The notes under the pieces were generated by a model. It did no database searches and was not told the origin of the DNA. It saw nothing but the letters and a program-made list of their open reading frames with translations. A stretch of DNA of 42,183 nt. It comes from Thiotrichaceae bacterium. GTDB taxonomy: Bacteria; Pseudomonadota; Gammaproteobacteria; Thiotrichales; Thiotrichaceae. Positions 544-36,749 of the stretch are shown one piece after another (position 1 is the stretch's first letter; every line of letters starts with the position of its first letter). Both the position numbers and the translations under genes were made by a program. The DNA is taken from the NCBI GenBank assembly GCA_023144895.1, contig JAGLEV010000053.1, positions 1-42,183 of the forward strand, in the 5' to 3' direction.

Positions 544-581
544 CTCTAGCAAGCAATAAATTAATATAATTATTAAAATAC

Positions 582-701
582 AGCAGTTTCTAGTTTAGTT
601 ATAAAGCAAGAGGGTTGCAATATCTTAGTAACCGAAAATCAAGACTTTAGAATTAAATAGTTATCAACTTATTTTATAGATACAGTAAAATAGGAACTGC
701 T
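582..701. repeat. Structured ~120-bp dispersed repeat, copy 1
   Basis: A 16-position inverted repeat closes the element (582-597 with 686-701, 15 of 16 paired, one G-U). Its interior matches the second copy at 24400-24514 over most of its length, including TAGTTATAAAGCAAGAG and TTATTTTATAG. It lies between genes, upstream of the TerD gene. The two copies differ in the arms by changes that keep pairing. That suggests a structural constraint, either RNA or a MITE-type terminal repeat. The function is unknown. Confidence 0.65.
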
Positions 702-822
702 AATTAAAATATTATTTTCATCTTCAATGAAGATTGGTGAAAGTATTGAATAATTTTTAAAATATGAGTTAGCGTGTGAGATAACTAACTCTCTGAAGTG
801 TAACTATAAGGAATAAATTAAT

Positions 823-1401
823 ATGGGTATTTCATTAGAGAAAGGTGGCAATGTTTCGTTAGATAGAGTTGCACCAGGTATGAGTCAATGTATTCTTGGT
901 CTTGGCTGGGATACTCGAACCACGGATGGTGCTGATTTTGACTTAGATGCCTCTTGTTTTATGGTAGGTGAAGATGGCAAGATACCTACTGATGATAACT
1001 TTATTTTTTATAACAATATGAAATCGCCTTGTGGATCTGTTGAACATACTGGTGATAACCTGACAGGTGATGGTGATGGTGATGACGAGTCTGTTAAGGT
1101 AGATCTTAGTAAAGTTCCAGAGAATATTAAGAAAATTACTATTGGAATTACCATACATAAGGCTGAAGAAAGAAACCAAAACTTTGGTCAAGTATCGAAT
1201 GCATTTATGCGAATTGTTAATCAGGATAATAATAAAGAAATAGTTCGTTATGACCTATCAGAAAATTATTCTGTTGAAACAGCGCTAATATTTGGTGAGC
1301 TATATCAGCATGGTAATGAGTGGAAATTTAAAGCGATTGGTCAAGGATTTAAAGGTGGACTAGGCCCAATGGCACAGCTACAGGGTGTTAGTATTGACTA
1401 G
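823..1401 (+). CDS. terD: TerD family protein (calcium-binding, tellurite/stress type)
   Basis: The 192-residue length is exactly what is usual for TerD/TerE proteins. The family signature is clear: LGWD at 27-30, DFDLDAS at 38-44, [13 protein letters not shown] at 77-89 and the glycine-rich C-terminal GFKGGLGP. The acidic residues in these stretches are the known Ca2+-binding positions of the family. Family members act in the cytoplasm in tellurite resistance, phage inhibition and envelope-stress phenotypes; their chemistry is unknown. Here the gene stands alone, with no terA, terB, terC or terZ neighbour, so a complete ter operon is not supported. Start: ATG at 823 preceded by AAGGA. terD versus terE cannot be settled from this sequence alone. 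Confidence 0.9.
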
Positions 1402-1437
1402 ATTATTAAAACTTTGTATCCCTATAATTCCAAGTAC

Positions 1438-7918: not shown

Positions 7919-8962
7919 ATGAAAGTACATTCTTTAGAAATAACCCCTGACATACTCAGAATTATTGCAGATATAGATGATTTTCGGGGAAGCTGGAGAA
8001 CCATGCGAAGCTTAACTCCAGAACGATTGGCTGTGTTGAAACGGGTTGCCACGATTGAAAGTATCGGGTCATCAACTAGAATAGAGGGGGTACGCCTTAC
8101 TGACTTGGAAATAGAAGATGTATTAAGTCACTTAGAGGCTAAATCGTTTACAAGCCGTGATGAACAAGAGGTGGCTGGTTATGCAGAAGTCATGGAGGTT
8201 ATTTTTAAGGGGTATGAAGCTATTGATTTGAGTGAAAATTATATAAAACAGCTTCACAGCATACTATTAAAGCATTCTGATAAAGATGTGCGACACCGAG
8301 GGCAATATAAAACACTGAGTAATAACGTAGAGGCGTTTGACGCAACAGGGAAAAGTTTAGGGGTTGTTTTTCAAACGGTTACTCCTTTTGAAACGCCTAT
8401 AAAGATGCAAGAGTTGATCTATTGGACAAGAGAATCACTAGCCGATAATAGCTTGCACCCATTGTTAGTTATGGGAGTTTTTGTTGTAGTATTTCTACAG
8501 ATACACCCTTTTCAGGATGGGAATGGTCGATTATCCCGTGCCTTAACCACTTTATTACTACTTAAATATAACTACCCTTACGTGCCTTATAGCTCTTTGG
8601 AAAGTGTGATAGAACAGAACAAAGAGGGATATTATTTAGGCTTAAGAAGGACACAGGGGACGTTAGAAAAAGAAAATCCAAATTGGTCACCATGGTTACG
8701 GTTTTTTCTTTCTTCACTACAAGCCCAAAAAAACCGTTTAGCCTCAAAATTAAACCTTAATGATGAATGGGGCATACTGCCTAAAGAATCCCTTTTGATT
8801 ATGGAGTATGTAAAAGAAAAAGGACGTATTACCATAAAAGAGGCTGAGGGTATAACAATGGATATTCCTCGCTCTACCCTTAAAAAAAGAATAGCGGACT
8901 TAGTAAAAAGTGGATTATTGTCTCAGCAAGGGAAAGCAAGAGGAACGTGGTATCAACTATAA
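7919..8962 (+). CDS. Fic family AMPylase with N-terminal inhibitory helix and C-terminal wHTH
   Basis: 347 residues. The Fic core has the full active-site motif HPFQDGNGRLSR at 196-207, including the catalytic His, so the enzyme should be active. Fic enzymes transfer AMP or other nucleotide groups to Ser, Thr or Tyr of target proteins. Upstream of the core SSTRIEG (51-57) matches the inhibitory motif (S/T)xxxE(G/N), which makes it a class II, self-inhibited Fic; no separate antitoxin is needed. The last 70 residues (LLIMEYVKEKGRITIKEAEG onward) look like a winged helix. That is common in this subgroup and suggests DNA binding or autoregulation. The target is unknown. Confidence 0.88.
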   Translation: MKVHSLEITPDILRIIADIDDFRGSWRTMRSLTPERLAVLKRVATIESIGSSTRIEGVRLTDLEIEDVLSHLEAKSFTSRDEQEVAGYAEVMEVIFKGYEAIDLSENYIKQLHSILLKHSDKDVRHRGQYKTLSNNVEAFDATGKSLGVVFQTVTPFETPIKMQELIYWTRESLADNSLHPLLVMGVFVVVFLQIHPFQDGNGRLSRALTTLLLLKYNYPYVPYSSLESVIEQNKEGYYLGLRRTQGTLEKENPNWSPWLRFFLSSLQAQKNRLASKLNLNDEWGILPKESLLIMEYVKEKGRITIKEAEGITMDIPRSTLKKRIADLVKSGLLSQQGKARGTWYQL

Positions 8963-12370: not shown

Positions 12371-13250
12371 TTGATGAGTCCTTGGTATTGAGAAAGCTGG
12401 GATGGGGAATTTTACCTCCTATGAAAAAAATTGGTAGTGATATTTTATTTGAATTTCAAACAAAGATACACGAAAGAAATAAAAATAAGACTAATATAAT
12501 CAAATAATTATATTAAATAATGCCGTTAACTTACACAGAGGAACTAAGCAAATATATTGACTTTTATAAATTATAGTTTTTTTAATAGGAATAATAATCT
12601 ATCATGGGGAAAATTTCGACCTGTACCATTAATAACTCTATAATAATGACTAAAATAGTCAGTCTTTTGTATTGAAAAATAGTTAATAAATTTTATAATT
12701 TGTTAAAATTCAAGGGCTAAGGGTAAAGTGATAGCAACTTTTTATAGAAATACAGCCGTTTCCATTAGGTTTTAGCTAGAGGTTGGTAGTGCCATCTGCT
12801 AAAAAAGGCAAAGGTCACAAAACTTTATATCCTTCTGTAATAGGGTTCAGAGAAGCAATAAGAACTGCTGATGTGAATAGGTGATGTATCACTATTTTTT
12901 TAGCTATTCTTTTATTATTAAGTTTATCACTGACTGATCGTCTTTCTAATCATTCAGTAAAGGGCATTAAAAAGTATCCATAACTTATCTTAGTTAGCGG
13001 TCATATTGATTTAAAAAAGAGAAATAAAAAGGAAATTTATACACTATCAAGGAAAGGTGTACTCTATTGCAATTTATATACCTTCATAGGATATTATTGA
13101 TTAAAGTAATAATTACAGCGCAAAAAATTATAAATATGATGACAAACAGCATTCGATAAGCTTGTTTCTAATATCGTCTAATCATCCTATTGATAAGATT
13201 AAACAAAATTATAGAATTTATTTTTCCTTCCTATAGAGATGATATAGTGT
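12371..13250. other. 880-base spacer, mostly without recognisable content
   Basis: This very AT-rich spacer lies between the divergent ParB-like gene and the 13251 gene. It includes TGACTAAAATAGTCA (12647-12661), a small palindrome. A 32-codon frame at about 12783-12884 reads PSAKKGKGHKTLYPS and IGFREAIRTADVNR; it looks protein-like but has no family, only a TTG start, and may be a gene remnant. Weakly matching ends near 12753 and 12870 (CAGCCGTTTC and GAACTGCTG) resemble the arms of the 582-701 repeat, but the interior does not. Promoters for both flanking genes should lie here; none is convincing. Confidence 0.5.
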
Positions 13251-23931: not shown

Positions 23932-24570
23932 TTCATTGACCTTTGTTATTATCAAAGTTTTAGTAGTAAAAGATCTTTACTCTGGAGTATCTACAGCAAA
24001 CTGATGAGAAATGGTAACAATATTCTGTTTTGATTTCTCAATCCACGTAAAAATCTTGCTAGTTATACACATAGATTAATTTCAAATGATTGAGAAGTGA
24101 CTATTGATAAGCATATTACTATGCTTGGATAGAGGGTATCACACTACTAATTTTATGTAGTGATAAAACCCAATATCAATGTAAAAACAATCGATAGAAT
24201 TGTTATACTTTTAAGCCCCTTTTGGTATGACTAGAAATTAATCATAACGCAGTATGCGGGGCTCAGCCTGTATTCAAACTTAAGGAAAGGACTGATTGAT
24301 AATTAATCATAGCGATTATTAGAATTTATTGGCTTCAATAATAATTTAATCAGAGTGTTTGTTTAACTAATGACTGAGGCTATTAGTAATAATAACAAGA
24401 GTTCCCGTTTTAGTTATAAAGCAAGAGAGGTTGCAATCTCTTAGCAATAAAAAATCAAGGCTGTAGACTTCAATCGTCATCAATTTATTTTATAGTTACT
24501 ATAAAACGGGAACTATTGTAATAATAGGTCACTTTTTCACAAGAAGATTTTATGCAAAAGTGACTTTAAA
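23932..24570. other. 640-base spacer with promoter-like region and repeat copy 2
   Basis: No gene is seen. TATACT (24204-24209) is a possible -10, but it points away from rseC. AGCCCC (24214-24219) can pair with GGGGCT about 40 bases later around an inner TATGA/TCATA hairpin, so a small transcript is possible. ATTAATCATARCG occurs twice, near 24238 and 24302. Copy 2 of the structured repeat is at 24400-24514. The rseC operon promoter should be here on the minus strand; I cannot point to it. Confidence 0.45.
24400..24514. repeat. Structured ~115-bp dispersed repeat, copy 2
   Basis: A 13-bp perfect inverted repeat, AGTTCCCGTTTTA (24400-24412) with TAAAACGGGAACT (24502-24514), encloses an interior closely matching 582-701. 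An inner hairpin AAGAGA-GGTTGCAA-TCTCTT is perfect in this copy. It lies 56 bases beyond the stop of the NlpC/P60 gene, between genes as copy 1 does. Confidence 0.65.
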
Positions 24571-29006: not shown

Positions 29007-32000
29007 TTACCCTTTGATTTTTTTTATTATTTTTCTCAATGGAGCCGCTAGCAGTAATAACCAGTACCAATACATTCCTATTACGCCACCAGCACCACCA
29101 CCAACAACCGATGTTACCCCATCAGTGGGCTCTTCAGCACCTCCAGTACCACTACCACCACTACCACCACTACCAACAGGTCTCTGGCGTATCGGTGTAT
29201 CAGCATTTTGATAATCTGGGATACCATCATTATTTAAATCGGGGCAAGGTATACCTGTTGGGCACTCCACTCGATCAGGAACACCATCACCATCCGCATC
29301 ACCATTAGGGTTACCATCAGGATTTTCAGCATTCGTATCTGGATCTAAATAGTCAGGAATGCCATCACCATCCGCATCACCTGTGCCCTCATCTCGATTA
29401 ATAACCCCGTCATTATCATCATCATCATCTTGATGATCGGGTATACCATCACCATCACTATCGATATTATTAGACTCCTGATAATTAGGAATACCATCAT
29501 TATCACTATCTAATGGCGTGACAGGATTACCACCAATCTCATCAATATCACTCACACCATCACCATCATCATCAGGATCAATATAATCAGGAGAAGTATC
29601 ATTATTAAGGTCAACACATGGCAGTGCTATATTCTTACATTCTGTTATATCACTTAAACCATTACGATCGGTATCACCACTACTATCTTCCATATCTTGC
29701 TGATTGGTTGAATCTGCATCGAGAAAATCAGGAATACCATCATTATCAATATCGTTAGCATAATCTGCTAATGTTGGCACCTCGTCTGCTGTTGGAATGC
29801 CATCATTATCATCATCAGGATCATTAAAGTCCTTCAAGCCATCACCATCAAAATCAGCAGTATTAGATTCAAGATAATCTGGAATATTATCATAATCGGT
29901 ATCAACTGAACCTTCATCAAGTGTCAGTAGCTGATCATCAGGGTCATTCCCATCCCCATCATCATCATCATCAAAGGCATTTAGAGAGCCATCATTGTCT
30001 AGGTCAAATGGGAATTCTATCTTTCTATTATTATTGACAATATTTCTATCATTATCATCATCATCCAAATAGATAGGAATACCATCATAATCAGCATCAA
30101 TCAAAGGAGACCCTCCGATTTCATCAAGATTACTAATACCGTCACCATCCCAGTCATTCGTCAAGGAATCAATAAAGCCATCATCATCAGTATCGGTATC
30201 GGTAGGATCTAGACCAGCCAACATCTCAATGAGGTTAGTCAGACCATCACCATCATTATCTTCTAAGCCATCAGGAGTACCATTACCATCAGTATCTGTT
30301 TTCACTGGATCAGAGTTAAGCTTTACTTCAAGTGCATTATTCAGCCCATCCCCATCACCATCTTCCAGACCATCAAGCGTACCATTACCATCAGTATCGG
30401 ATTTTGTTGGATCTAGCCCTAATGCCAGCTCAACCTCATTACTCAATCCATCGCCATCACTATCATTTCCAGTGTTCAGGTAATCCTTATTAGGAACATT
30501 GTCATCAACACCATCATTATTGACATCATCTCCACCCGTTTGATCCACATCATAGCGATCATCAATACCATCACCATCCGTATCTTTACCAGTACGAGCC
30601 TCAGCAGCATCAGAAACCCCATCACCATCAGAGTCTGAATCTAAGTAGTTAGGAGTGCCGTCATTATCTTTATCAATAAAACCTTCAACAACATCAGGAA
30701 TACCATCATTATCACTATCTAAATCATAGATATTTGGAATGCCGTCATCATCACTATCAGGCAAGCCTACGCCATTAGTGAAACGATCATCAATGCCATC
30801 ATTATTCGTATCAGGGCCACCTGTCTGACTGACATCAAAATAATCATCAATACCATCACCATCATCGTCATTGCCTATGCCCGCTTCCACCGCATCAGGG
30901 ACACCATCACCATCGGAATCTAAATCAAGATAATCAGGAATACCATCATTATCTCTATCACCTTTACCTTCAACAATATCAGGAATACCATCATTATCAC
31001 TGTCTAAGTCATAGATATCTGGAATTCCATCACTGTCAGTATCCATTAAACCTATACCCCCATTAAAGCGGTCATCAATACCATCACCATTAGCATCCGT
31101 ACCTCCTGTTTGAGTTATATCAAAACGGTCATCAATACCATCATTGTCTGTATCCGTCCCTATGCCTGCTTCTAGTGAATCAAGAATACCATCACCATCT
31201 GAATCTGTATCTCGGTAGTTAGGAATACCATCATTATCGGTATCGGTTACTCCTTCAATAATATCAGGAATACCATCATTATCACTGTCAGTATCAAAGA
31301 AATCAGGAGTACCGTCATTATCTTTATCGGTTAAGCCCACTCCCCCATTAAAGCGATCATCAATGCCATCATTATTCGCATCAGTTCCACTCGTCTGATC
31401 CACATCAAAGAGGTCATCAATCCCATCACCATCTGTATCAGTACCCGTTTCAGCTTCTATTGCATCCAGAATGCCATCACCATCAGAATCGGTATCTCGG
31501 TAATTAGGAATACCATCACCATCTACATCTCCACTCCCTTCAACAATATCAGGAATACCATCATTATCACTGTCAGCATCAAAGAGATCAGGAGTACCGT
31601 CATTATCTTTATCCGTTAAATCTGCTCCCCCATTAAAGCGATCATCAATGCCATCATTATTGGCATCCGTCCCACCCGTTTGGTTCACATCAAAGCGATC
31701 ATCGATTCCATCATTATCGGTATCGGTGCCTGTTTCAGCTTCTGCTGAATCAAGAATGCCATCACCGTCTGAATCGGTATCTCGGTAATTAGGAATGCCG
31801 TCATTATCGGTATCGGTTATCCCTTCAACAATATCAGGAATCCCATCATTATCACTATCAATATCAAAGATATCGGGAGTACCGTCATTGTCTTTATCGG
31901 TTAAACCTGCTCCCCCATTAAAGCGATCATCAATGCCATCATTATTCGCATCCGTTCCGCCCGTCTGAGTCACATCAAAGCGATCATCGATCCCATCACC

Positions 32001-35000
32001 ATCCGTATCGGTACCCGTTTCAGCTTCTACTGAATCAAGAATGCCATCACCGTCTGAATCGGTATCTCGGTAGTTAGGAATACCATCATTATCGGTATCA
32101 ACTACCCCTTCAATAACATCAGGAATACCATCATTATCACTGTCAACATCAAAAATATCAGGCGTACCGTCATTATCTTTATCGGTTAAACCTGCTCCCG
32201 CATTAAAGCTATCATCAATGCCATCATTATTGGCATCCGTTCCGCCCGTTTGAGTGACATCAAAGCGATCATCAATCCCATCACCATCCGTATCAGTACC
32301 TGTTTCAGCTTCCATTGCATCGAGAATGCCATCACCATCTGAATCGGTATCACGGTAGTTAGGAATACCATCATTATCAGTATCTCCAGTGCCTTCAACA
32401 ATATCAGGAATGCCATCATTATCACTATCGGCATCAAAGATATCAGGAGTACCGTCACTGTCTTTATCGGTTAAACCCACTCCACCATTAAAGCGATCAT
32501 CAATGCCATCATTATTCGCATCGGTTCCACTGGTCTGATCTACATCAAAGCGGTCATCAATCCCATCACCATCCGTATCAGTACCCGTTTCGGCTTCCAT
32601 TGCATCCAGAATGCCATCACCGTCTGAATCGGTATCACGATAGTTAGGAATGCCGTCATTATCCGTATCGGTTACCCCTTCAACAATATCAGGAATGCCA
32701 TCATTATCACTGTCAATATCAAAGATATCAGGAGTACCGTCACTATCTTTATCGGTTAAACCCACTCCACCATTAAAGCGATCATCAATGCCATCATTAT
32801 TAACATCCATCCCACCCGTCTGAGTGACATCGAAGTGATCATCGATCCCATCACCATCCGTGTCCGTACCTGTTTCAGCTTCTACTGAATCGAGAATGCC
32901 ATCACCGTCTGAATCGGTATCTCGGTAGTTAGGAATCCCGTCATTATCAGTATCTCCAGTCCCTTCAACAATATCAGGAATACCATCATTATCACTGTCA
33001 GCATCAAAAATATCAGGAGTACCGTCATTATCTTTATCGGTTAAACCTGCTCCACCATTAAAGCGATCATCAATACCATCATTATTCGCATCCGTCCCGC
33101 CCGTTTGAGTGACATCAAAGAGGTCATCAATGCCATCACCATCCGTGTCCGTACCTGTTTCAGCTTCTGCTGAGTCAAGAATACCATCACCATCTGAATC
33201 CGTATCTCGGTAGTTAGGAATCCCATCACCATCCGTATCTCCAGTCCCTTCAACAATATCAGGAATCCCATCATTATCACTGTCAGCATCAAAGATATCA
33301 GGAGTACCGTCATTATCTTTGTCTGCTAAACCTGCTCCTGCATTAAAGCGATCATCAATACCATCATTATTGGCATCCGTTCCGCCCGTCTGAGTCACAT
33401 CAAAGCGGTCATCGATTCCATCACCATCGGTATCAGTACCCGTTTCAGCTTCTACTGCATCTAGAATGCCATCACCGTCTGAATCGGTATCTCGATAGTT
33501 AGGAATACCATCATTATCTGTATCCCCACCCCCTTCAACAATATCGGGAATGCCATCATTATCACTGTCAGCATCAAAGATATCAGGAGTGCCATCACTG
33601 TCTTTATCCGCTAAACCTGCTCCCCCATTAAAGCCATCATCAATGCCATCATTATTCGCATCAACTCCGCCCGTTTGATTCACATCAAAGCGATCATCAA
33701 CCCCATCATTATCCGTGTCCGTACCTGTTTCAGCTTCTGCTGAGTCAAGAATACCATCACCATCTGAATCCGTATCTCGGTAGTTAGGAATACCATCACC
33801 ATCTGTATCCCCGCCCCCTTCAACAATATCAGGAATGCCATCATTATCACTATCAGCATCAAAGATATCAGGAGTGCCATCACTGTCTTTATCCGCTAAA
33901 CCTGCTCCCCCATTAAAGCGATCATCAATGCCATCATTATTCGCATCCACCCCGCCCGTTTGAGTCACATCAAAGAGGTCATCGATTCCATCACTATCCG
34001 TATCGGTGCCTGTTTCGGCTTCCATTGCATCCAGAATGCCATCACCGTCTGAATCCGTATCACGGTAATTAGGAATGCCATCACCATCAGTATCAACGAC
34101 TCCTTCAATAATATCAGGAATGCCATCATTATCACTGTCAGCATCAAAAATATCAGGAGTACCATCATTATCTTTGTCGGTTAAACCTGCTCCCCCATTA
34201 AAGCTATCATCAATGCCATCATTATTGGCATCCGTTCCGCCCGTTTGAGTGACATCAAAGCGATCATCAATCCCATCACCATCCGTATCAGTACCTGTTT
34301 CAGCTTCCATTGCATCGAGAATGCCATCACCATCTGAATCGGTATCACGGTAGTTAGGAACTCCATCACCGTCCGTATCTCCAGTGCCTTCAACAATATC
34401 AGGAATGCCATCACCATCAGAATCGATGTCACGATAGTTAGGAATACCATCATTGTCGCTATCTCCAGTGCCTTCAACAGCATCAGGAATACCGTCATTA
34501 TCACTGTCAGTATCAAAAATATCAGGAGTACCGTCATTATCTTTATCTGCTAAACCTGCTCCCCCGTTAAAGCTATCATCAATACCATCATAATTGGCAT
34601 CAGTTCCGCCCGTTTGATTCACATCAAAGCGGTCATCAATCCCATCATTATCCGTATCGGTACCCGTTTCAGCTTCTGCTGAATCGAGAATACCATCACC
34701 GTCTGAATCCGTATCTCGGTAATTAGGAATACCGTCATTATCCGTATCTCCAATCCCTTCAACAATATCAGGAATACCGTCATTATCACTGTCAGTATCA
34801 AAAATATCAGGAGTGCCATCATTATCTTTGTCGGTTAAACCTGCCCCCCCATTAAAGCGATCATCAATGCCATCATTATTCGCATCAGTTCCGTTCGTTT
34901 GAGTTACATCAAATAGGTCATCAATGCCATCACCATCCGTATCCGTACCCGTTTCGGCTTCCATCGCATCCAGAATACCATCACCGTCTGAATCCGTATC

Positions 35001-36749
35001 TCGGTAGTTAGGAATACCATCATTATCGGTATCAACTACCCCTTCAACAATATCAGGAATACCATCATTATCACTGTCAGTATCAAAAATATCAGGAGTA
35101 CCGTCACTATCCTTATCCGCTAAACCTAATCCACCATTAAAGCGATCATCAATACCATCATGATTAGCATCCATCCCACCTATTTGATTCACATCAAATA
35201 GGTCATCAATCCCATCATTGTCCGTATCCGTTCCTGTACCAGCTTCTGCTGAATCGAGAATACCATCACCGTCTGAATCCGTATCTCGGTAGTTAGGAAT
35301 TCCATTATTATCCGTATCAGCGATCCCTTCAACAATATCAGGAATACCATCATTATCACTGTCAGCATCAAAAATATCAGGAGTGCCGTCATTATCTGAA
35401 TCGGTTAAACCTGCTCCCCCATTAAAGCGATCATCAATACCATCATTATTCGCATCTGTCCCACCCACCTGATCCACATCAAAGAGGTCATCAATACCAT
35501 CACCATCTGTATCCGTACCCGTTCCTGCTTCCATTGCATCTAGAATGCCATCACCATCCGAATCCGTATCACGATAGTTAGGAACACCATCATTATCCGT
35601 ATCCCCACTCCCTTCAATGATATCAGGAATGCCATCGCCATCACTATCAATATCAAGAATATTAGTGACTTGATCACCATCAGTATCCACTAATTTAGCA
35701 CTATCATCGATCCCATCACCATTGGTATCAATACCGCCGACTATTTGATCAACATCAAAGACATCAGGAATGCCATCATTATCCGTATCAGTCAAGCCAG
35801 CTAATTCCGCTTCAATATTGTCATTAATACCATCACCATCAGTATCAATCTTCCTTGGGTTTGATCCTAATGCTGTTTCTAGTCCTGTTCCTATTCCATC
35901 ACCATCCCAGTCATCCATAGGATCAAGAGCATCAATTTTATTATCATTATTACTATCAATAGGATTATTAATATCTCCTCCTACTTCAGTTTTATCATCA
36001 ATCCCATCACCATCAGTATCAACCTTCGCTGGATCAGTACCAGTCAAATTCACCTCAACAGTATTGCTAAGCCCATCATTATCATAGTCACCCACTGGGC
36101 TCATAATACGAATCGGCATCGTTGTCGGTTCACCCTTATTACCTAAATCATCACTACTTACCGCCGCAACAGTATATGTGTCATAATCTAGTTGAGAAGG
36201 AACCTCACACTCCCATGTACCATCAGGTTCAACAATCGTATCGCAACTACCATCAACCCCTTCAATAGTCACATCAATACGACTACCAACCTCACCCGTT
36301 CCCTTTAATGTCGGCTGTTTATTAAAGTTAATTACTGATGAAGTCATCTCAGGAACAGCAGGCGGAACCTTGTCTAATTTATAAAAAGGTAAATCAGAAT
36401 CAGCAGTAAAATTAATATTAGGATCGACATTTTTAAGTTTAATCATAATATTACCTATTTCTTTCGTGGTAATATGAACTAAATATACTTTCTCATCGTT
36501 GCCTAAAGCCTCTACTGAAGCAGTCCCCCCCCCAGCATCAAAGACAAAAAGTATATTATCTATTGTTATTAACGTGCCACTAGCTAACTCTATCTTATAC
36601 GTGACAATTTCTGCATTAGTTCTTGGGTTTAGAGGTTCTGACCGTGCAATCTGATAGTTTATTGATTCACCCCAAGCATAACTAGGTGTTAGAAAAACAG
36701 AACTAATTAATACCGACAATAAGGTTCTTCTTATTATTTTATTTTTCAT
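29007..36749 (-). CDS. Giant secreted Asp-rich protein of thrombospondin type 3 repeats
   Basis: 2580 residues. The signal peptide ends near 25 (VFLTPSYA). An unassigned domain (about 28-130) and a bacterial Ig-like domain (about 131-215) precede an almost continuous run of D-x-D-x-D-G calcium-binding motifs to about 2540. Seventeen units of 95 residues begin at residue 391, each with six motifs. After a Gly/Ser linker the C-terminus is [18 protein letters not shown] plus a basic tail, which fits GlyGly-CTERM-type surface sorting. The protein should be extended, very acidic, calcium-stabilised and cell-surface attached; adhesion or matrix function is inference. No ribosome binding site precedes the ATG; an (ATT) repeat occupies that place. 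Confidence 0.9.
30651..35579 (-). repeat. Tandem array of 17 x 285 bp units plus one 84-bp partial unit
   Basis: Each unit starts with [14 protein letters not shown] (later ones NYLD or DYLD) and ends ...DTDNDGIP. 17 x 285 + 84 = 4929 bases, exactly the span measured. Units are in frame and close in sequence through the middle of the array; the last two (nearest 30651) are the most diverged. An eighteenth, broken unit begins at 30650. The array lies inside one gene and is not a CRISPR. Confidence 0.9.
34356..34439 (-). repeat. 28-residue hybrid partial repeat unit
   Basis: Between units four and five lies a short segment starting [18 protein letters not shown]. Its first half matches the beginning of a unit, and its second half matches the [13 protein letters not shown] part about 66 residues further on. 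This is the product expected from recombination or slippage between two similar motifs in different parts of the unit. Frame is kept (84 bp). Confidence 0.75.

What the first reader, a model, noticed from the sequence alone, without database searches (positions are those of the whole stretch)
582..701. Dispersed structured element with compensatory changes (partner at 24400-24514)
The two copies share most of the interior and have terminal arms that pair. In the arm, T591-A692 of copy 1 is C24406-G24508 in copy 2, and A592-T691 is G24407-C24507: two double changes that both keep pairing, plus one G-U to G-C. Selection on structure, either as RNA or as a MITE-type end, is the simplest reading. 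Both copies lie between genes. I do not recognise a described family.
Basis: partly seen in the sequence, partly recalled or inferred. Interest (0 to 1): 0.7.

Follow-up and report, generated by a model that had tools for sequence, protein, structure and literature searches.

The report
Dispersed miniature transposon (MITE) family
The two matching hairpin-like stretches are old copies of a small, gene-less jumping DNA element found at 22 places in this bacterium's genome; this is an ordinary kind of element, and the supposed compensatory changes do not point to a structured RNA.

Summary
The pair is real, but it is two of 22 copies (model search, E<=0.01) of a ~122-bp non-autonomous transposable element (MITE). 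True ends are 581-702 and 24396-24518; consensus terminal inverted repeats are 17 bp (CAGCAGTTCCCGTTTTA). Decisive: a 9-bp target-site duplication. Over 21 copies with both ends, the flanking 9-mers are 71.4% identical against 35.6% for mismatched flanks (z 8.6, 0 of 2000 shuffles); 14 of 21 match at 7 or more of 9 bases. Copy 1 has ATTAAAATA on each side. The compensatory-change argument fails on a larger alignment. Over 17 copies, pairing and double changes are about those of shuffled arms and RNAalifold predicts no pair. After duplication of the TerD-gene locus the element diverged more (87.7% identity) than the 3' flank (93.3%) or the gene (95.9%). Nearly confined to this genome: 1 further copy in 59 other genomes of its family. 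No autonomous partner was found; PF01609 and PF00872 transposases gave no match in the assembly, other transposase families were not searched. A new family of a well-known kind, of low interest.

The parts
581..702 (+). MITE copy 1 (122 bp)
   Evidence: blastn and covariance-model matches in own genome; ends set by the model and the flanking duplication
572..580 (.). left 9-bp target-site duplication of copy 1 (ATTAAAATA)
   Evidence: 9 of 9 identical to 703-711
703..711 (.). right 9-bp target-site duplication of copy 1 (ATTAAAATA)
   Evidence: 9 of 9 identical to 572-580
581..597 (+). left terminal inverted repeat of copy 1
   Evidence: aligned with the consensus CAGCAGTTCCCGTTTTA
686..702 (-). 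right terminal inverted repeat of copy 1
   Evidence: aligned with the consensus end TAAAACGGGAACTGCTG
24396..24518 (+).
   Evidence: covariance-model match, best in the genome, E 5e-26
24387..24395 (.). left target-site duplication of copy 2 (TAATAATAA)
   Evidence: 8 of 9 identical to 24519-24527
24519..24527 (.). right target-site duplication of copy 2 (TAATAATAG)
   Evidence: 8 of 9 identical to 24387-24395
24396..24412 (+). left terminal inverted repeat of copy 2
24502..24518 (-). right terminal inverted repeat of copy 2
823..1401 (+). TerD-domain ORF downstream of copy 1; the locus 551-1415 (element, flank, gene) is duplicated elsewhere in the genome (C63) with its own copy of the same insertion
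   Evidence: Pfam PF02342 E 3e-83; 815 of 866 identical

Best explanation
The element is a MITE: a ~122-bp non-autonomous DNA transposon with imperfect 17-bp terminal inverted repeats, long since inserted at 22 recognisable places. Shown: dispersed copies, common ends, a 9-bp duplication of a site-specific sequence at each insertion, copies with internal deletions that keep both ends, no room for a transposase gene. Inferred: a transposase acting in trans, of the cut-and-paste kind that leaves 9-bp staggered cuts, bound the two inverted ends and moved the DNA; its gene has been lost from this genome, lies outside the assembly, or belongs to a family not searched. The copies have since decayed: the arms pair because they began as inverted repeats, and most differences between copies are independent mutations or differences between source copies. 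The hairpin potential of a transcript would be a by-product.
For: 22 places at E<=0.01 in the own genome. 9-bp flank identity 71.4% against 35.6% in mismatched flanks, 0 of 2000 shuffles, z 8.6; 14 of 21 copies at 7 or more of 9 (five 9/9, three 8/9, six 7/9), the flanks differing from copy to copy. Consensus inverted repeats over 17 aligned copies. Internally deleted forms with two ends: 89 bp at C27, 50 bp at C31, 92 bp in G059. None of 22 copies wholly inside an ORF of 90 aa or more; 3 overlap ORF ends by 20 to 43 bases. No covariation over shuffled arms and faster divergence than flank and gene after locus duplication.
Against: No autonomous element with these ends was found: of 45 matches to the 14-base end with up to 2 mismatches (21 expected from the reversed control), none form an inward pair 0.7-3 kb apart (by inspection); no PF01609 or PF00872 match. 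7 of 21 copies show 2-4 of 9 matching flank bases, i.e. no duplication. The 50-bp and 80-bp forms at C31 and C17 match 5 and 1 of 9, the G059 copy 3 of 9. No orthologous empty site was shown. Flank lengths 6 and 12 also exceed shuffles mildly (z 2.8 and 3.2). One measure of double changes leans weakly towards covariation (mean 0.72 against 0.49 per copy pair, 11% of shuffles).
Confidence: 0.95

Rival explanations
1. A structured non-coding RNA (or structured cis-element) family kept by selection on pairing, spread by duplication.
For: The two window copies differ by 3 double changes that keep pairing. Some copies fold better than shuffled sequence: z -2.5, -4.5, -5.2, -1.8, -0.4, -5.9 in the 6 copies tested. 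The 17+6-pair structure beats slid versions (85.8% against 40-50% cells paired), as any inverted repeat would.
Against: Shuffled arms pair as well (85.1%) and give as many doubly changed pairs (5.6 against 6). RNAalifold predicts 0 pairs. The inner 6-pair stem shows none either (1 against 1.1). The element diverged more than neutral-looking flank after locus duplication. No Rfam match in the window at gathering threshold. The 9-bp duplications are not explained.
Confidence: 0.03
2. A MITE some copies of which have been put to use by the host, for example as a terminator, mRNA-stability hairpin or promoter.
For: Most copies lie just outside ORFs; MITEs in other bacteria are described as transcribed or carrying promoters (passages of PMC6382973 and PMC5896051).
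Against: Nearest ORFs of 20 copies with both neighbours: 13 same strand, 4 divergent, 3 convergent, so no preference for gene ends (counted). Pattern scan of 400-1000: 0 terminator-like sites and 3 promoter-like against 3.8 expected (only copy 1 scanned). No conservation of the element over its flank in the duplicated locus.
Confidence: 0.1
3. Remnants of one full-length insertion sequence decayed to its ends (solo ends, relics) rather than a MITE that moved as such.
For: Single ends exist, e.g. C88:26110-26129.
Against: 17 copies share the same interior of about 88 bases between the ends, with their own 9-bp duplications, so the short form itself moved.
Confidence: 0.02

Closest known systems
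MITEAba12 of Acinetobacter (PMC6382973; passages seen)
   Same: Short (111-114 bp), no coding capacity, terminal inverted repeats, 9-bp AT-rich target-site duplications, dispersed.
   Different: Its ends read GGCTTTGTTGCACAAA, unlike CAGCAGTTCCCGTTTTA; it has a resident partner (ISAba12), here none was found.
QMITE2 of Coxiella burnetii (PMC5896051; passages seen)
   Same: Intergenic, 150-190 bp, direct repeats of 7-11 nt that differ for each copy, size variants.
   Different: Sequences not compared here; QMITE2 carries a REP that IS1111 targets, not looked for here.
hupL MITE of Candidatus Thiomargarita nelsonii (PMC4853749; passages seen)
   Same: Also a sulfur-oxidising gammaproteobacterium; 19-bp inverted repeat and a 10-bp direct repeat that share one base, close to the 9-bp duplication here; no parent found in ISfinder by those authors.
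   Different: Its sequence is in a supplement I did not see, so identity is untested; those authors suggest a Yhg-A type PD-(D/E)XK partner, which was not searched here.

Membership tests
Prokaryotic MITE | short, typically under 500 bp, without a transposase gene | tested here: met
   122 bp, so at most 40 codons; no ORF of 80 aa overlaps 581-702. Size criterion from review PMC10969869, passages.
Prokaryotic MITE | terminal inverted repeats (~4-30 bp) | tested here: met
   17 bp in the consensus of 17 copies; per copy 65-100% of positions pair.
Prokaryotic MITE | target-site duplication in the younger copies | tested here: met
   9 bp; 14 of 21 copies at 7 or more of 9; 0 of 2000 shuffles as high.
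Prokaryotic MITE | several dispersed copies | tested here: met
   22 places at E<=0.01.
Prokaryotic MITE | transposase-bearing partner with the same ends | tested here: inconclusive
   None found by end patterns in 63 genomes of the family and 369 of the class nor by PF01609 and PF00872 in the own genome; other transposase families not searched; a lost partner would not exclude a MITE.
Structured RNA family | covariation beyond chance in the helices | tested here: not met
Structured RNA family | match to a described Rfam family | tested here: not met
   0 matches at gathering score in the window
Structured RNA family | expressed as a discrete RNA | not testable with these tools
   no RNA-seq
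MITEAba12 | ends GGCTTTGTTGCACAAA | tested here: not met
   ends here are CAGCAGTTCCCGTTTTA (against the paper's table)
hupL MITE of Thiomargarita | sequence of the inverted repeat | not tested

The most novel reading that the evidence does not exclude
A MITE family with no DDE partner of the common kinds in its host, moved by a transposase outside the IS families known to leave 9-bp duplications (for instance of the PD-(D/E)XK type proposed for a MITE of Thiomargarita), so that its ends could serve to find that enzyme.
Probability: 0.07. Interest if true: 0.5.

Novelty: new member of a known kind. Interest (0 to 1): 0.15.

Why it matters
It settles a plausible false lead: two copies of an inverted-repeat element can show several double changes that keep pairing without any selection on structure. 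It also adds a named-by-sequence MITE family (17-bp ends, 9-bp duplication) for a group of marine gammaproteobacteria, which could help to mark insertion polymorphisms or to find the missing transposase.

Tried and rejected
Structured RNA: rejected (above). Autonomous partner: end patterns in the own genome, in 63 genomes of the family, the same 63 as 'order', 369 of the class and viral contigs gave no full-length element. Of the 7 of 63 genomes matching, loci of 6 were printed from the start of the match (own genome apart: G069, G014, G017, G071, G059); the G079 locus (L059) was not caught by my pattern and was not looked at. The G069 matches lie in long near-identical sequence that continues past the end and has no resemblance to this element beyond the 17 bases (6 of 7 places; the seventh differs). 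PF01609 (3 candidates, 0 pass; rings in 9 of 14 control genomes) and PF00872 (0; rings in 6 of 14 controls) are absent from the assembly. Plasmid and phage records: no match. Viral contigs: no match to the interior. The NlpC/P60 gene beside copy 2 was searched in the genus to find an empty site: best match 53% identical over half the protein, so no usable orthologous site; not pursued.

Printed texts of the ends: 0 of the 5.39 million held papers carry the 16-17 base end; most subscription journals and ISfinder are not covered.

Caveats on counts: the 17-row alignment A1 leaves out 5 of the 22 places (C27, C64, C65:11481, C11 and C41: truncated, deleted or partial). L001 and L002 are one insertion, duplicated, so independent counts are one lower. 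Row L015 is shifted by a base or two at its 5' end.

Full report
Observation. The copy at 24400-24514 matches copy 1 at 83% identity, E 2e-24. By a covariance model the ends are 581-702 and 24396-24518. Between these two copies there are three positions, not two, at which both arms differ and still pair (positions 3, 11 and 12 of the arm), besides mismatches in both copies.

A dispersed family. blastn finds 20 places in the own genome at E<=0.1. A covariance model built from 17 aligned copies (A1; R1) finds 22 places at E<=0.01; 17 of these are the model's own rows and match by construction. Two weaker matches (C31, E 0.07; C17, E 1.95) also carry both ends. Copies differ from the consensus by 13.1% and from one another by 20.7% on average. 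In 57 genomes searched by DNA only the own one matched. In 60 genomes of the family searched with the model (stricter filters), one other matched, G059, with one 92-bp copy. This is the same contig that an exact pattern found in the named collection as a Cocleimonas sp. metagenome-assembled genome (identity of the two loci checked). The host is therefore inferred to be a relative of Cocleimonas within one GTDB family; the name itself is not given by any search.

Mobility. Each of the 21 places with both ends was read with its flanks. The 9 bases on the left and right agree at 71.4%, against 35.6% (sd 4.2) when flanks are dealt out among copies; 0 of 2000 shuffles reach this. Per-position agreement is 12 to 18 of 21 within the nine positions and falls to 1-8 of 21 outside. 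Fourteen of 21 copies match at 7 or more of 9: five 9/9, three 8/9, six 7/9. The other seven match at 2-4 of 9. At lengths 4 to 14 other than 9, at most one copy reaches 78%; lengths 6 and 12 show mild excess of mean identity (z 2.8, 3.2). Two 9/9 copies (L001, L002) are one insertion duplicated with the TerD gene, so the independent count is 13 of 20. The duplicated 9-mers differ between copies, so the repeat is not part of the element. This is the mark of transposition.

Selection on structure. On the 17-row alignment, 85.8% of cells pair; with the 3' letters dealt out anew the mean is 85.1% (112 of 500 reach it). Pairs with a change on both sides: 6 against 5.6 (254 of 500); cells with such a change: 10 against 7.5 (88 of 500); covariation score 0.163 against 0.155 (121 of 500). 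Slid structures pair far less (40-50%), which an inverted repeat must give. Fisher tests per arm pair give no p under 0.06 (17 pairs). The inner 6-pair stem shows nothing either, and RNAalifold predicts no pair. Single copies fold better than shuffles to varying degrees: z -0.4 to -5.9 in 6 copies.

A natural experiment. The locus 551-1415 recurs in C63 at 815 of 866 identical bases, with the element and its 9-mers. Since that duplication the element kept 107 of 122 bases (87.7%), the 3' flank 112 of 120 (93.3%), the 5' flank 28 of 30, the coding sequence 555 of 579 (95.9%). The arms kept 15 of 17 and 13 of 17. At positions 11-13 copy L002 reads C-G, A.C, T-G where L001 reads T-A, A-T, G.A: pairs are gained and lost side by side. 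The element is thus not more constrained than its surroundings.

Context. None of the 22 copies lies wholly inside an ORF of 90 aa or more; three overlap ORF ends by 20 to 43 bases. Of 20 copies with ORFs on both sides, 13 lie between same-strand, 4 between divergent and 3 between convergent ORFs. This suits an element that survives where it does no harm and gives no sign of a role as terminator.

Mechanism. Shown: common ends, flank duplication, internally deleted forms. Inferred: a transposase in trans acting on the ends with a 9-bp stagger. From general knowledge (recalled), IS4/IS10/IS50-, IS903-, ISAs1-, IS1- and IS256-type elements leave duplications of about 8-9 bp; most of those with a DDE_Tnp_1 domain and those with Transposase_mut were sought in the own genome and gave no match. 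End patterns showed no longer element with these ends. The partner is therefore lost, not assembled or of another family.

Known kinds. It meets the tested features of a prokaryotic MITE as given in the review PMC10969869 (passages). MITEAba12 is a close parallel in size and duplication length (passages of PMC6382973) but has other ends. A Thiomargarita MITE is a possible relative that could not be compared (passages of PMC4853749). No held paper carries the end sequence.

Noticed in passing
L052:1674-1738 (G000:C13:1674-1738) and L062 (G017:C136:16468-16532): A 65-bp stretch 82% alike in two genera begins with the same end motif (CAGCARTTCCCGTTT) but then differs from this element (GGTTA..CTTG..TATARCC); perhaps a second, related element or a solo end. 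Weaker matches at E 0.0006-0.007 in 6 other genomes cover only parts.
   Followed up: partly
alignment A1 (17 copies): The 3' inverted repeat differs from the consensus twice as often (71 of 287, 24.7%) as the 5' one (37 of 286, 12.9%) or the interior (10.9%); ends in CTGCTG and CTATTG types.
   Followed up: no
window 551-1415 and L024:1471-2336: TerD-domain gene with its upstream MITE duplicated at 94% identity; further terD-like stretches follow in L024.
   Followed up: partly
G000:C65:11481-11607(+) and 12559-12680(-): Two copies about 1 kb apart in opposite orientation round one 313-aa ORF; the left one lacks recognisable right end and duplication.
   Followed up: no
window 29007-36749 (-): 2580-aa ORF with bacterial TSP3 repeats; a 14-base match to the end motif recurs in it at 31439 and 33434, suggesting internal repeats.
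   Followed up: no
window 7919-8962 (+): ORF with a Fic/DOC domain.
   Followed up: no
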